Positions 11,402 through 46,490 of a stretch of 64,000 nt of DNA are shown here, in pieces. The notes below the pieces were generated by a model. The model ran no database searches and was not told the origin of the DNA. It saw nothing but the letters and a program-made list of their open reading frames with translations. Source of the DNA: Mumia sp. zg.B17 (GTDB lineage Bacteria > Actinomycetota > Actinomycetes > Propionibacteriales > Nocardioidaceae); the NCBI RefSeq assembly GCF_019550915.1, contig NZ_JAHWCI010000008.1:682001-746000 (forward strand). The letters are read 5' to 3'. Positions within the stretch are counted from its first letter, which is position 1. Every line of letters starts with the position of its first letter. The position numbers and the translations under genes are program-made.

Positions 11402-12676
11402 ATGATCGACGTTCGTACGCTCCGTGACAACCCTGACGAGATCCGCGCCGCCCAGCGCCGCCGTGGCGAGTCTGAGGCTGTCGTCGACGAGCTCATCGCG
11501 GCCGACGAGGCCCGTCGATCGGCGATCGGCCGGTACGAGGCGCTCCGTGCCGAGCAGAAGCAGCTCGGCAAGCAGGTTGCCCGCGCCACCGGTGACGAGA
11601 AGGCCGAGATCCTCGCTCGCACCCGGGAGCTCTCCGCCCAGGTCAAGGAGGCCGACGCCGCGTCCGGTGAGGCCGGTCGCCTCTTCGACACGCTGCTCGC
11701 GACGCTCCCCAACCTCGCCGCGCCGGAGTCGCCCCCCGGCGGCGAGGACGACTTCGTGGTCCGCGAGACCGTCGGGGAGCCGCGCGACTTCGCCGCCGAG
11801 GGCTTCACGCCGCTCGACCACATCGAGATCGGCAAGCGCCTCGGCGCCTTCGACATCGAGCGGGGCGCCAAGGTGAGCGGTGCCCGCTTCTACTTCCTCA
11901 CCGGCATCGGCGCCCAGCTCGAGCTGGCTCTGGTCCAGATGGCGATGGACCGCGCGACGGCGTGGGGCTTCACTCCGATGATCCCGCCGGCGCTGGTGAA
12001 GCCGTCCGCCATGGAGGGGACCGGATTCCTCGGGCAGGCCGCCGACGACGTCTACCACCTCGAGAAGGACGACCTCTACCTCGTCGGCACGTCGGAGGTG
12101 CCGCTCGCGGCGTACCACTCCGACGAGATCCTCGACGCCGAGTCTTTGCCGCGCCGTTACGCCGGGTTCAGCCCGTGCTACCGCCGCGAGGCAGGCTCGT
12201 ACGGCAAGGACACCCGGGGCATCTTCCGGGTGCACTGGTTCGACAAGGTGGAGATGTTCGTCTACGCGACACCCGAGGACTCCTACGCGGTCCACGAGGA
12301 GCTGCTGGCCCACGAGCAGGACTGGCTCAACGCGCTCGAGCTCCCGTACCGCGTGATCGACGTGGCGGCCGGCGACCTCGGTCTCTCGGCGATCCGCAAG
12401 TTCGACTGCGAGGCGTGGATCCCCACCCAAGGCAAGTACCGCGAGCTGACCTCCGCCTCCAACTGCACCAGCTTCCAGGCGCGCCGTCTCGGCATCCGCA
12501 TGCGTGACGGCGAGCAGGTCACCCCGCTGGCGACTCTCAACGGCACGTTGATGGCGTCGACCCGGACGATCATCGCCCTCCTCGAAAACCACCAGCAGGC
12601 CGACGGGTCAGTCCGGGTCCCCGTGGCGCTGCAGCCCTACCTCGCAGGCCGAGAGATCTTGGAGCCGCTGTCTTGA
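11402..12676 (+). CDS. serS: Seryl-tRNA synthetase
   Basis: A 424-residue class II aminoacyl-tRNA synthetase charging tRNA-Ser. The N-terminal coiled-coil arm spans about residues 25-100 (heptads around [19 protein letters not shown]). The catalytic core shows the Ser-binding TSEVPL, motif 2 in [18 protein letters not shown] followed by [12 protein letters not shown], and motif 3 in [18 protein letters not shown] near the C terminus. Length is typical. ATG 11402 fits the family N terminus ([15 protein letters not shown]). The stop overlaps the TTG of the downstream HAD gene. Two tRNA-Ser genes lie 9 kb downstream. Confidence 0.97.
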
Positions 12677-13491
12677 CGTTGACCTCGCACACCACCGACG
12701 GCGCCGCCACGACCTGGAGGCCACGCATCGTGGCCCTGGACGTGGACGGCACGATCGTCGACTACGACAACGAGATGACCGACGCCGTACGCCAGGCGGT
12801 CCGCGCGACCGCCGAGGCCGGGATGCACTGCGTGATCTCGACCGGCCGCTCCGTCTCCGGCGTCATGGACGCGGTCCAGAAGCTCGGGTTCACCGAGGGC
12901 CTCGCGGTCGCCAGCAACGGCTCCGTGGTGTTCTCCTACGATCCGATCACGATCCTCCACACCGTCACCTTCGACGCCGGCCCGGCCGTGCGCGCTCTGA
13001 TGGCGGAGGTGCCGGAGGCCGCCGTGGCCGTGGAGAACGTGGGCGTCGGCTTCCGCATGAACAAGCCGTTCCCCGACGGGGAGCTGGGTGGTGAGATCGC
13101 TCACGAGCCGATCGAGGACCTCATCGCCGAGCCGGTCACCCGCGTGATCGTCCGCAGCCCCGACTCCTCGGCGGAGGAGTTCGCCGAGCTCGCGCACTCG
13201 TTGGGCCTGGAGGGTACGAACTACTACGTCGGTTACACGGCCTGGCTCGACCTGGCGCCGGAGGGCGTCTCCAAGGCGGCCGGTCTCGAGCAGGTGTGCG
13301 CCGAGCTGGGTGTCGACCGCGCCGACGTGCTGGCGATCGGCGACGGTTCCAACGACGTCGAGATGCTCGAGTGGGCCGGCCGCGGCGTCGCGATGGGGCA
13401 CGCCCCGCTGCACGTCCAGGCGGTGGCCGACGACGTCACCGAGACGGTCGAGAACGACGGCGTCGTGCGGGAGCTCGAGAAGTACCTCTGA
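12673..13491 (+). CDS. HAD-superfamily Cof-type phosphatase
   Basis: A 272-residue HAD IIB hydrolase, probably a sugar-phosphate or flavin-nucleotide phosphatase. Motif I is [12 protein letters not shown], motif II is STGRS, the conserved Lys is in [11 protein letters not shown], and motif IV is [14 protein letters not shown]; the large cap lies between motifs II and III. The start is taken as TTG 12673 because it overlaps the serS stop by four bases (TTGA) and gives a short, plausible N terminus; a later GTG (in RIVALDVDG) would cut too close to motif I. Substrate not predictable. Followed by a GC-rich hairpin and a convergent wbl gene. Confidence 0.83.
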
Positions 13492-13537: not shown

Positions 13538-14143
13538 TCAGGCGGTCAACGCACAGATCGGTGCGTGGCCGACGACCTCGTCGAACACGTCGAGCACCTC
13601 GTCGACACTGGGCGGTGCCGTGCGAGCGTGGCGCGCACCCGCTTGACGGGGCCGGCTCGAGGCCTGCCGAAGGTGCCGCTTGACGGTGGACAGCGAGCAC
13701 CCGAGGCGCTCGGCGAGCTGGGCGAACGTGTCTCTCGGGTTGGCCCGCCGCGCCGCCAGGACCGCCTCGTGATCGACCGGTGAGCCCGCCGTACGGACGC
13801 CCGCGATGCGGTCGATGTCGGGATTGCCCACCGTGATGCCGAGACGGTTGCGGATCTCGTGGCGCTCCTGCGGCGAGGTGCAGGCCACGTACCCGGCAAC
13901 CTCTCCGTCGACCACGGCCCGATAGAGGCACTGGACGAGGAGGGGGCAGGAGGCACATGCCTCGGCCGCCTTGTCATGAGCCGCCTGCCAGGCGTCCCAC
14001 GACTCACCGGAGCTCGAGACGTCCTCGAGCGGGACGGAGAGCGTGTCGTAGACGTCGGCCATCGTCGCGCAGGGCGGGACGACGTCGAGCGATGCGTCGA
14101 CCTGACGGCGGGTGGACGGGTTCTGAGTGGAGCCGGTGCGCAT
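13538..14143 (-). CDS. WhiB-like protein with C-terminal helix-turn-helix (copy 1)
   Basis: A 201-residue protein that joins a WhiB-like cluster domain to a DNA-binding helix-turn-helix. Four Cys have WhiB-type spacing at their end (Cys25, Cys63, Cys66, Cys72; CASCPLLVQC is CxxCx5C), which should bind an iron-sulfur cluster. The usual GVWGG turn is replaced by AGYVACTSPQER. Residues about 138-160 (DTFAQLAERLGCSLSTVKRH) form a clear helix-turn-helix, followed by a conserved tail PPSVDEVLDVFDEVVG. ATG 14143 is preceded by GAAGGGGA at a long distance. Standard Wbl proteins are about 80-140 residues and lack this helix-turn-helix. Probably a transcription regulator; target unknown. A close tandem paralogue follows at 14274-14960. 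Confidence 0.75.
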   Translation of the reverse strand: MRTGSTQNPSTRRQVDASLDVVPPCATMADVYDTLSVPLEDVSSSGESWDAWQAAHDKAAEACASCPLLVQCLYRAVVDGEVAGYVACTSPQERHEIRNRLGITVGNPDIDRIAGVRTAGSPVDHEAVLAARRANPRDTFAQLAERLGCSLSTVKRHLRQASSRPRQAGARHARTAPPSVDEVLDVFDEVVGHAPICALTA

Positions 14144-14273
14144 GATCTTTGCATCCCCTTCGAGCTACGAGATGCAAGGAGTCAAACAGGTGCGACAAAG
14201 CACGAATCAGCGCGCAAATACTCAACCGGCAGATGGGCGTTACTCAGCGGGAACCAGGTACGTGTTGCCTGCG

Positions 14274-14960
14274 TCACACCGTATCTGACGCGGGTGTCAC
14301 CGTCGACCGGTGCGGCGACGGTGCCGAGTACCACTCACAGGCACCCCGCCGGGGCCGTCCCTGCCCGCTGGAGACGTGGCGCCTCCGCACGCGGCTCGCC
14401 ACGACATGGGTGGGCGCGTTGCCGACGACCTCGTCGAAGACGTCGAGAACCGCGTCGACGCTCGGAACGGCCGTGCGAGACGGCCGGGCGCCCTCACTCG
14501 ATGCCTCGCGCACGCGGCGCTTGACGGTGGAGACCGAGCAGCCGAGACGATCGGCGAGCTGGGCGAAGGTGTCGCTCGGGTACGCGCGCCGTGCCGCGAG
14601 GACGTCGTGGGGACCCGGCACCGAGTCTGTCGGACGCAGTCCGGCGAGCCGGTCGGTGTCCACAGCGCTCACCGTGATGCCGAGACGGCTGCGGATCTCG
14701 TGCCGCTCCTGCGGCAACGTGCAGGCGACGTAGCCCTCGACGTCCCCCTCGACGACCGCCCGATAGAGGCACGTGGCGAGCAGCGGGCAGGAGGCACAGG
14801 CCTCGGCCGCCTGGTCCCGAGCCCCATTCCAGGCGTGCCTCGACTCGCACGGATCCGCGAGCGTGTCGTAGACGTCTCGCATCGACACGCAGGGCGGCAC
14901 GACATCGAGCGACGCGTCGAGTCGACCGCTGGTCCGGCTGTGACTGAAGCTGGTGCGCAT
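14274..14960 (-). CDS. WhiB-like protein with C-terminal helix-turn-helix (copy 2)
   Basis: A 228-residue tandem paralogue of the protein at 13538-14143, sharing DASLDVVPPC, EACASCPLLATCLYRAVV, GYVACTLPQERHEIRSRLGITV and DTFAQLADRLGCSVSTVKRR. The cluster Cys are 24, 55, 58 and 64; an extra Cys38 lies between. It differs by a shorter linker between Cys1 and Cys2 and by an unrelated basic tail of about 40 residues (VRRRHVSSGQGRPRRG...) that copy 1 lacks. GGGGAGG eight bases before ATG 14960 is a strong ribosome site. The 5' leaders of both copies share GAAGGGG and AGATCATG, so duplication included the leader. Transcribed in the same direction as bpa, 75 bases after its stop. Confidence 0.75.
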   Translation of the reverse strand: MRTSFSHSRTSGRLDASLDVVPPCVSMRDVYDTLADPCESRHAWNGARDQAAEACASCPLLATCLYRAVVEGDVEGYVACTLPQERHEIRSRLGITVSAVDTDRLAGLRPTDSVPGPHDVLAARRAYPSDTFAQLADRLGCSVSTVKRRVREASSEGARPSRTAVPSVDAVLDVFDEVVGNAPTHVVASRVRRRHVSSGQGRPRRGACEWYSAPSPHRSTVTPASDTV

Positions 14961-15035
14961 GATCTGGCCTCCCCTTCGCGCGACGAAGAGGACAGTGAAT
15001 CACCTGCTACAAGGTCTGGGCCAGCGAATAGATTC

Positions 15036-15605
15036 TCAGAGGTACATCCCCGGGCGGGGCTGCTGGCCCTCCTCGGGCTGCTGATAGCCCGGCATCCCGG
15101 GGCGCAGGCCCTGTGGCGAGGCGCCCGGAGCCCCCGGCAGCGCTCGTCGCATCTGCTGGAGCTGCGACTGAGCGGCGATCTGCTGGGCGTAGATCGCGGT
15201 CTGGATCCCGTGGAACAGCCCTTCGAGCCAGCCGACCAGCTGCGCCTGGGCGATCCGGAGCTCGTCTTCGGACGGCGTCTCCTTGTCGAACGGGAGACTC
15301 AGGCGCTCCAGCTCCTCCACCAGCTCCGGCGCGAGCCCGTCCTCGAGCTCCTTGATGGAGGTCTGGTGGATGTCCCGGAGCCGGACCCGACTGGCCACGT
15401 CCAGCGGCGCAGACTTCACCTCTTCGAGGAGCTGTCGGATCATGCTCCCGATCCGCATGACCTTCGCGGGTTGCTCGACGAGGTCGGTGACCGGGCGGTG
15501 ACCGCCCTCGTCCTCGCTCTCGACGGGCTCGACCTCCTGGCCGTCGGGTCCGACGACACGGTGCTGGTCAGAGATTTCGGCGCGCTCGAACGGGTCTCCT
15601 GACAT
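15036..15605 (-). CDS. bpa: Bacterial proteasome activator Bpa/PafE
   Basis: A 189-residue ring-forming, ATP-independent activator of the 20S proteasome. The conserved core is visible: TDLVEQPAKVMRIGSMIRQLLEEV, RLRDIHQTSIKELEDGLAPEL, and ELRIAQAQLVGWLEGLFHGIQTA, a four-helix bundle at about residues 40-150. The C terminus ends in GMYL, matching the GQYL-type motif that docks into the proteasome alpha ring. The N-terminal 35 residues are acidic and probably disordered. ATG 15605 was chosen because the long upstream extension overlaps the preceding gene and is unlike the family. It starts 14 bases after the aldose epimerase stop. Its presence implies that the organism has a 20S proteasome elsewhere. 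Confidence 0.93.
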   Translation of the reverse strand: MSGDPFERAEISDQHRVVGPDGQEVEPVESEDEGGHRPVTDLVEQPAKVMRIGSMIRQLLEEVKSAPLDVASRVRLRDIHQTSIKELEDGLAPELVEELERLSLPFDKETPSEDELRIAQAQLVGWLEGLFHGIQTAIYAQQIAAQSQLQQMRRALPGAPGASPQGLRPGMPGYQQPEEGQQPRPGMYL

Positions 15606-45289: not shown

Positions 45290-46191
45290 CCACCCGTACG
45301 CCGATGCGCGAACGCTTCTACTCCGAGCTCGGGCCCCTCCTCGACAGCGATCCACGGGTCGCTGTCGTCCTCGCCGTGATCGGCTCCAGCGGCCTCACCG
45401 ACGTGAGCGCGCGCCATCCGGACCGCGTGATCGACGTCGGGATCCGCGAGCAGACGATGGTCGGGGTCGCCGGCGGCCTCGCGCTCGCAGGGCTGCGGCC
45501 GATCGTCCACACCTACGCCCCGTTCCTGGTGGAACGCGGCTACGAGCAGCTCAAGCTCGACCTGGGACACCAGGACGTCGGAGCGCTCCTGGTCAGCACC
45601 GGCGCCTCGTACGACGCCAGCACCGCCGGCCGTACCCACCAGGCGCCCGCCGACGTCGCGCTGATCTCGGCGTTGCCGGGGTGGACCGTGCACGTGCCGG
45701 GTCACGCCGAGGAGCTCGCCCGCATGGTCCGCCGTGAGTCGGCCACCGATCAGCGGGTCTACGTGCGGATGTCGTCCGCGCAGAACGCCCGTCCCCACCC
45801 GGTCGACGGTCGGCTCCACGTCGTGCGCGGGGGCCGGCACACCCTTCCGCTGGTGGTCGTGGTCGGCCCGCTGCTCGACACCGTCCTCGAGGCCACCCAC
45901 GATCTTGCCGTCCGCGTCGCCTACACGTCGACGCCGCATCCCCTCGACGCCCACGGCCTCCGGACGCTCGCCGGGCCGACGCCGGTCGTCGCCATGGTCG
46001 AGCCGTACCTCGAGGGCACGAGCGCTGCCGCCGTCGCGGCCGCGCTGGTGGATCGTCCGAGCCGGGTGCTCCACGTCGGTGTCCCGCGCGACTCCGAGCT
46101 ACGGCGGTACGGGTCACCGAAGGATCACGCTGCCGCGCACGGTCTCGACGCGCCCGGGATCCGTGCCCAGATCAAGGAGCTGGTCGGATGA
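45286..46191 (+). CDS. Transketolase-like protein, C-terminal subunit
   Basis: A 301-residue partner with the Pyr domain (VIDVGIREQTMVGVAGGLALAGLRPIVHTYAPFLVERGYEQ; the Glu of IREQ activates ThDP) and a C-terminal transketolase domain (VVGPLLDTVLEA, VAMVEPYLEGTS). ATG 45286 overlaps the N-subunit stop; its own stop overlaps the whiB7 start (ATGA). Confidence 0.85.
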   Translation: MTTRTPMRERFYSELGPLLDSDPRVAVVLAVIGSSGLTDVSARHPDRVIDVGIREQTMVGVAGGLALAGLRPIVHTYAPFLVERGYEQLKLDLGHQDVGALLVSTGASYDASTAGRTHQAPADVALISALPGWTVHVPGHAEELARMVRRESATDQRVYVRMSSAQNARPHPVDGRLHVVRGGRHTLPLVVVVGPLLDTVLEATHDLAVRVAYTSTPHPLDAHGLRTLAGPTPVVAMVEPYLEGTSAAAVAAALVDRPSRVLHVGVPRDSELRRYGSPKDHAAAHGLDAPGIRAQIKELVG

Positions 46192-46490
46192 GCGCCGTCG
46201 CCAGGGCCGCCCTCGATGCGCCTGACGTCCCCTGCCGAGTGGCCGGCGCCGACCTCTGGTTCGCCGAGCACGCCGACGAGATCGAGCGCGCCAAGGCGCT
46301 CTGTCGCGCGTGTCCGATCCGCGACGCCTGTCTCGCCGCCGCCCTCACCCGCCGGGAGCCGTGGGGCGTCTGGGGCGGCGAGGTCTTCGTCAAGGGCCAG
46401 CCGGTCGCGCACAAGCGGGGTCGCGGCCGACCGCCCGCACGGTGCGGACCGAGAGCGGAGCGGAGCCCCCGGCGCCACGACATCCTCTAG
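46188..46490 (+). CDS. whiB7: WhiB7-type transcription regulator
   Basis: A 100-residue canonical Wbl protein: Cys16, Cys39, Cys42 and Cys48 (Cx22Cx2Cx5C) for a [4Fe-4S] cluster, the EPWGVWGGEVF turn and an AT-hook HKRGRGRPP. The combination of EPWGVWGGE and RGRP hook marks WhiB7, the SigA partner that induces intrinsic antibiotic resistance. Unusually, ATG 46188 overlaps the transketolase stop, leaving no room for the long uORF leader that controls whiB7 in mycobacteria and Streptomyces. An extra Cys and an Arg-rich tail follow the hook. Stop TAG overlaps the TAG of the convergent gene (CTAG). Confidence 0.85.
   Translation: MSAVARAALDAPDVPCRVAGADLWFAEHADEIERAKALCRACPIRDACLAAALTRREPWGVWGGEVFVKGQPVAHKRGRGRPPARCGPRAERSPRRHDIL

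What the first reader, a model, noticed from the sequence alone, without database searches (positions are those of the whole stretch)
13538..14960. Tandem WhiB-like proteins carrying their own helix-turn-helix
Ordinary Wbl proteins act through SigA and lack a separate helix-turn-helix. These two paralogues keep four Cys but replace GVWGG with GYVAC and add a helix-turn-helix and a conserved DEVLDVFDEVVG tail. They may be stand-alone redox-responsive DNA-binding proteins.
Basis: partly seen in the sequence, partly recalled or inferred. Interest (0 to 1): 0.75.

Follow-up and report, generated by a model that had tools for sequence, protein, structure and literature searches.

The report
WhiB-like proteins with built-in HTH
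Two neighbouring genes in a soil actinobacterium (Mumia) encode iron-sulfur-type WhiB-like regulators that have lost the residue their relatives need to grip the RNA polymerase sigma factor and have gained their own DNA-binding domain; one such gene is kept at the same place in about half of the genomes sampled from its order, and I found no description of the family.

Summary
Both ORFs are intact, 67% identical, and carry the four Wbl cysteines, a helix-turn-helix (HTH) and a conserved C-terminal helix. They belong to a family found in 148 of 294 Propionibacteriales genomes, normally one copy beside bpa/HAD/serS. Profile and PDB searches place the Cys region with Wbl proteins only. The Trp of G[VI]WGG, required for sigmaA binding in WhiB3, is absent from all 68 members checked. 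The family forms a separate branch from ordinary and phage Wbls. The tandem pair is a duplication private to this genome.

Extra result: a rare palindrome, TGAGTA-N4-TACTCA, lies upstream of the gene in many Propionibacteriaceae; in 11 of 14 genomes with an exact copy it sits at this promoter. Mumia has genome-unique TGAGTA direct repeats there. The same palindrome precedes a DUF2157 membrane-protein gene, also in genomes lacking the regulator, so who binds it is open.

Best reading: an Fe-S sensor that binds DNA itself instead of acting only through sigmaA. Cluster binding, DNA binding and loss of sigmaA contact are inferred, not shown. Wbl plus HTH also occurs in phage and plasmid Wbls, so the architecture alone is not unique. 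New variant of a known kind.

The parts
13538..14143 (-). wbl2: Wbl-HTH protein, 201 aa; the conserved ortholog (76% identical to M. xiangluensis)
   Evidence: ORF; PF02467 25.9 bits over cut-off 23.6; syntenic orthologs
14274..14960 (-). wbl1: diverged tandem paralog, 228 aa, 7-aa deletion between Cys1 and Cys2, longer C-terminus (contains GQGRPRR)
   Evidence: ORF; 67% identical to wbl2; sister of wbl2 in the tree (SH-aLRT 90); dN 0.21, dS 0.51 against wbl2
13856..14083 (-). wbl2 Wbl domain (about residues 21-96): Cys25, Cys63, Cys66, Cys72; GYVAC at 84-88
13658..13783 (-). wbl2 helix-turn-helix (about residues 121-162)
   Evidence: Pfam Sigma70_r4 and HTH_24 matches; AlphaFold pLDDT 83-96 over the HTH
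13565..13612 (-). wbl2 conserved C-terminal helix PSVDEVLDVFDEVVG (about residues 178-192)
   Evidence: alignment A2; helix in models
14206..14246 (-). candidate operator of wbl2: TGAGTA-N16-TGAGTA-N9-TGAT, genome-unique, conserved in all six Mumia genomes
14149..14177 (-). hairpin enclosing the Shine-Dalgarno of wbl2 (UUGCAUCUC...GGGAUGCAA)
   Evidence: z -2.5 here, -5.4 in the G001 ortholog
14970..14992 (-). hairpin of different sequence enclosing the Shine-Dalgarno of wbl1
   Evidence: z -2.3
15036..15581 (-). bpa (bacterial proteasome activator-like; name from own knowledge), conserved upstream neighbour
12673..13491 (+). HAD hydrolase, conserved convergent neighbour, preceded by serS (11402-12676)

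Best explanation
These are two copies of an undescribed Wbl-derived regulator of Propionibacteriales. The N-terminal domain keeps the four-Cys [4Fe-4S] pocket of Wbl proteins but has lost the Trp that ordinary Wbls use to hold sigmaA region 4. A tri-helical HTH C-terminal to it reads DNA directly, and a short amphipathic tail probably mediates dimerisation or partner contact. Cluster state (oxygen or NO) would switch DNA binding. The gene is a single-copy, vertically inherited component of the order, controlled through TGAGTA elements (by itself or by a co-regulator) and, in Mumia, through an SD-hiding hairpin. In this genome it was duplicated and the upstream copy is diverging. Shown: homology, domain order, residue losses, conservation, synteny, conserved upstream elements. 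Inferred: cluster, redox switching, direct DNA binding, independence from sigmaA, autoregulation.
For: A profile search of PDB sequences finds WhiB1, WhiB, WhiB4, WhiB3 and WhiB7 as its best hits. Cys1, Cys2 and Cys3 are invariant and Cys4 is in 27/28. The Trp position holds V/A/C/M/L/I in 67/67 scored proteins and A in one more read by eye. Single Ala changes of F31, F32 or W76 in WhiB3 abolish sigmaA4 binding (PMC10245118); here the Trp is lost and the second Phe position is not aromatic. All 28 members match Sigma70_r4 and r4_2 at E<=0.01, some above the Pfam cut-off; HTH residues S150, S152, T153, K155, R156, R159 are invariant. Order-wide single copy with conserved synteny. Separate branch from seven own-genome Wbls and phage Wbls. 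TGAGTA-N4-TACTCA lies upstream in 13 of 70 orthologs at <=1 mismatch against 0 in shuffles, and at this promoter in 11 of 14 Propionibacteriaceae genomes holding an exact site.
Against: No biochemistry. The palindrome also precedes a DUF2157-type gene in genomes lacking the regulator, so another protein can bind it. An aromatic residue (Y/F) next to the lost Trp might still contact sigmaA. One member has lost the fourth Cys (L025, from a fragmented genome). HTH type is not resolved (Lrp, resolvase, mariner and sigma4 structures tie). Foldseek E-values are all above 0.3, and the better model's alignment contained ordinary Wbls, so its Wbl fold is not independent evidence.
Confidence: 0.55

Rival explanations
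1. It still works as a sigma-dependent Wbl: the Wbl domain docks on sigmaA or another sigma factor through altered residues and the HTH only anchors it to promoter DNA, as the AT-hook does in WhiB7.
For: First aromatic of the FF pair is kept as Y/F in 28/28 and an aromatic Y/F sits at the V position of G[VI]WGG in 27/28. WhiB7 is a precedent for a Wbl with an added DNA-binding motif at a sigmaA promoter (PMC6282962).
Against: Trp absent in every member checked and second Phe position not aromatic; each is essential in WhiB3 (PMC10245118).
Confidence: 0.22
2. Intramolecular switch: the HTH resembles sigma region 4, the natural partner of Wbl domains, so the holo Wbl domain masks its own HTH and cluster loss frees it.
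For: Sigma70_r4 and r4_2 match all 28 members, some over the gathering score.
Against: HTH equally resembles Lrp/AsnC, resolvase and mariner HTHs; residues that hold sigma4 are lost; low inter-domain confidence (pTM 0.52).
Confidence: 0.1
3. The cysteines bind zinc or serve structure only; the protein is a constitutive DNA-binding regulator without redox sensing.
For: No cluster shown; one member lost Cys4.
Against: Ligand spacing matches Wbl, best hits are Fe-S Wbl structures, cysteines near invariant.
Confidence: 0.1
4. (On the operator only, compatible with the others.) The conserved TGAGTA elements belong to an unrelated regulator that controls both this gene and a DUF2157 membrane protein; the Wbl-HTH acts elsewhere.
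For: Palindrome about 58-74 bp before the DUF2157-type gene in genomes with and without the Wbl-HTH.
Against: Repeatedly placed at this gene's own promoter across several genera while its recognition helix is invariant.
Confidence: 0.5

Closest known systems
WhiB-like (Wbl) family, WhiB1/WhiB3/WhiB7 (PF02467)
   Same: Four Cys in C-x(n)-CxxCx5C, CP motif, Arg-rich helix after the loop, Actinobacteria only, helical Wbl fold predicted
   Different: No G[VI]WGG Trp, second Phe lost, about 200 aa with HTH and conserved tail; separate branch in the tree
WhiB7/WblC
   Same: Wbl domain followed by a DNA-binding element
   Different: WhiB7 keeps EPW-GVWGG and has an AT-hook, not an HTH; both own-genome WhiB7 proteins are elsewhere
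Phage and plasmid Wbl proteins with a C-terminal HTH (PHROG 10071, PHROG 664; S. anulatus plasmid protein WP_331759124.1)
   Same: Wbl domain then HTH-like segment; the plasmid protein also lacks Trp (GIVAGTT) and has a similar tail
   Different: Phage examples keep GVWGG and their HTHs are weak profile matches; not chromosomal, not syntenic
Streptomyces long proteins (L051, L052)
   Same: Same Wbl subdomain with GYxAATT and an LDAFD tail
   Different: No recognisable HTH motif between them by eye; 469-595 aa open frames

Membership tests
Wbl (WhiB-like) family | Four Cys as C-x(n)-CxxCx5C | tested here: met
   Cys1-3 in 28/28, Cys4 in 27/28
Wbl (WhiB-like) family | G[V/I]WGG turn, called the only other universal motif (PMC6282962) | tested here: not met
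   Trp absent in 68 of 68 members; GYVAC/GYVGC/GFVAG instead. So it is filed as a Wbl-derived family, not as an ordinary Wbl
Wbl (WhiB-like) family | Sequence homology to the Wbl domain profile | tested here: met
   PF02467 in 27/28 members at E<=0.01; wbl2 over the cut-off, wbl1 just under it in hmmscan; PDB profile hits are Wbls
Wbl (WhiB-like) family | Binds a [4Fe-4S] cluster | not testable with these tools
   Needs spectroscopy
Wbl (WhiB-like) family | Binds sigmaA region 4 | not testable with these tools
   Two of three residues essential in WhiB3 are absent, which predicts no canonical binding
WhiB7 class | AT-hook RGRP after the Wbl domain | tested here: not met
   HTH instead; no AT-hook match in Pfam; wbl1 tail has GQGRPRR in one sequence only
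Sigma-70 factors | Region 2 plus region 4 | tested here: not met
   Only region-4-like HTH matched
Lrp/AsnC regulators | HTH plus C-terminal RAM domain | tested here: not met
   HTH-like match only, no RAM domain in Pfam

The most novel reading that the evidence does not exclude
A Wbl lineage has exchanged sigmaA hijacking for autonomous, site-specific DNA recognition (TGAGTA-N4-TACTCA) under Fe-S control, giving an FNR-like one-component redox regulator evolved from a sigma co-factor.
Probability: 0.25. Interest if true: 0.8.

Novelty: new variant of a known kind. Interest (0 to 1): 0.6.

Why it matters
How Wbl proteins find their targets is a standing problem because nearly all lack a recognisable DNA-binding domain; the 2018 review names WhiB7 as the only exception (PMC6282962). 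A chromosomal, order-wide Wbl with its own HTH, no sigma-binding Trp and a candidate operator makes it directly testable whether a Wbl Fe-S domain can control DNA binding without sigmaA.

Tried and rejected
Functional link to the neighbour bpa: rejected, because bpa occurs without the gene and the gene without bpa. Phage origin of this family: no close relative in IMG/VR or phage records; more distant relatives are in Streptomyces and a Streptomyces plasmid. Operator recognised as BldM's: rejected, BldM group I is TCACcCgnncGgGTGA (PMC4125116). Kribbella site TGAGTATGCATACTCA about 7 kb from the gene: read as a PadR-type gene's own operator, not a target. Mumia genomes scanned with 2 mismatches: no excess over the reversed control, so no wider regulon seen. 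The first AlphaFold job with three sequences modelled only the HTH well. The structural matches do not decide the HTH type.

Full report
What is there. The minus strand of the window carries two intact ORFs, wbl1 (14274-14960, 228 aa) and wbl2 (13538-14143, 201 aa), between bpa and a HAD hydrolase gene. They are 67% identical. Each has Cys1, then CxxCx5C, then GYVAC where ordinary Wbl proteins have G[VI]WGG, then a helix-turn-helix, then PSVD.VLDVFDEVVG.

Is the Cys region a Wbl domain? Yes by homology. Pfam WhiB matches wbl2 above the curated cut-off and wbl1 slightly below it, and 27 of 28 orthologs at E<=0.01. A profile of the family searched against all PDB sequences returns WhiB1, WhiB, WhiB4 and WhiB3 below E 0.1, with WhiB7 next at 0.14. 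The genome has seven other Wbls that I assign by motif to the known classes WhiB1, WhiB2, WhiB3 (two), WblA and WhiB7 (two), so this is an additional class.

Is the HTH real? All 28 orthologs match Sigma70_r4 and r4_2 at E<=0.01, some above the gathering score. The HTH is the confident part of the first AlphaFold model (pLDDT 74-82) and reaches 83-96 in the second. Structural matches are a tie of Lrp/AsnC, Tn3 resolvase, mariner, LuxR-type and sigma-4 HTHs, so I call it a generic tri-helical HTH.

What was lost. In WhiB3 single Ala changes at F31, F32 or W76 abolish binding to sigmaA region 4 (PMC10245118). In this family the first aromatic is kept (Y/F, 28/28), the second position is not aromatic, and the Trp position holds V, A, C, M, L or I in 67 of 67 scored proteins and A in one more read by eye. 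The prediction is that the canonical sigmaA grip is gone; an aromatic residue one place earlier leaves some doubt.

Distribution. The full-length family is in 31 of 58 near relatives and 148 of 294 Propionibacteriales genomes, almost always as one copy. No full-length member was found outside the order in samples of 297 genomes of the class and 296 of the phylum; partial relatives occur in Streptomyces. In 18 of 20 sampled genomes it lies near bpa, in most of them with HAD and serS on the other side. Some genera lack it cleanly at the same locus. bpa and the gene occur independently of each other, so no functional link to Bpa is claimed. A domain tree puts the family, with three Streptomyces relatives, on one side of a long branch, apart from ordinary and phage Wbls (SH-aLRT 91; few columns, quick method).

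The tandem. wbl1 and wbl2 are sisters (SH-aLRT 90); the other five Mumia genomes have one copy, so the duplication is private to this lineage. wbl2 keeps the ancestral promoter and higher similarity to the orthologs. wbl1 evolves faster (pN/pS 0.55-0.66 against other Mumia, compared with 0.32-0.43 for wbl2) but is intact and keeps all four Cys and the HTH.

Upstream control. In six of six Mumia genomes the promoter holds TGAGTA-N15-18-TGAGTA-N8-10-TGAT, exactly once per genome, with none for the reversed control. In Propionibacteriaceae-like genomes (family f2 of the tool; the family name is my inference) the corresponding element is a palindrome, TGAGTA-N4-TACTCA: 13 of 70 ortholog upstream regions hold it with at most one mismatch against 0 in 20 rounds of shuffles. 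Genome-wide it is rare (0-3 exact copies), and in 11 of the 14 f2 genomes with an exact copy it lies 122-203 bp before this gene's match. The same palindrome lies about 58-74 bp before a zinc-ribbon/DUF2157 membrane protein gene in Kribbella-like and several other genomes, including ones without the Wbl-HTH. So it is very probably a real shared operator, but its binder may be the Wbl-HTH, another regulator, or both. In Mumia a hairpin also encloses the Shine-Dalgarno sequence (z -2.3 to -5.4 in the five tested), with a different-sequence hairpin before wbl1.

How unusual is the architecture? Several viral-contig Wbls carry C-terminal HTH-like segments but keep GVWGG, and a Streptomyces anulatus plasmid protein annotated as a WhiB family regulator has the Trp-less Wbl domain, an HTH-like segment and a similar tail. 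The 2018 review states that WhiB7 is the only Wbl with a recognised DNA-binding motif and that G[VI]WGG is universal (PMC6282962). I found no paper describing this family in the library searched; subscription papers are not held.

Conclusion. I rate it a new variant of a known kind.

Noticed in passing
window 46188-46490 (+): A second WhiB7-like gene (EPWGVWGG plus RGRGRPPA AT-hook) in addition to the WhiB7 elsewhere in the genome (L006).
   Followed up: partly
window 14149-14177 and 14970-14992 (-): Hairpins of unrelated sequence that each enclose the Shine-Dalgarno of wbl2 and wbl1; the wbl2 stem shows a T-A to C-G compensatory change and G-U variants in other Mumia.
   Followed up: partly
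L306, L309, L310, L316, L318, L322, L323, about 58-74 bp before the start codon: The palindrome TGAGTA-N4-TACTCA at near-fixed distance upstream of a zinc-ribbon/DUF2157 large membrane protein gene, in genomes with and without the Wbl-HTH; its regulator is unknown.
   Followed up: partly
L051, L052: Streptomyces open frames of 469-595 aa with the same Trp-less Wbl subdomain and an LDAFD tail but no evident HTH.
   Followed up: partly
L025:1477-2094: One ortholog (from a fragmented genome) has Trp instead of the fourth cluster Cys and Arg instead of the conserved Pro.
   Followed up: no
window 14277-14400 (-): wbl1 has run past the ancestral stop into a basic tail containing GQGRPRR, resembling an AT-hook.
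   Followed up: no
L141, L151, L168, L182, L191, L208: Viral-contig Wbls with intact GVWGG followed by C-terminal HTH-like segments, a recurrent architecture for which I found no description.
   Followed up: partly
L260, L261 (genome G556): The only other genome in the order sample with two copies of the family, on different contigs.
   Followed up: no
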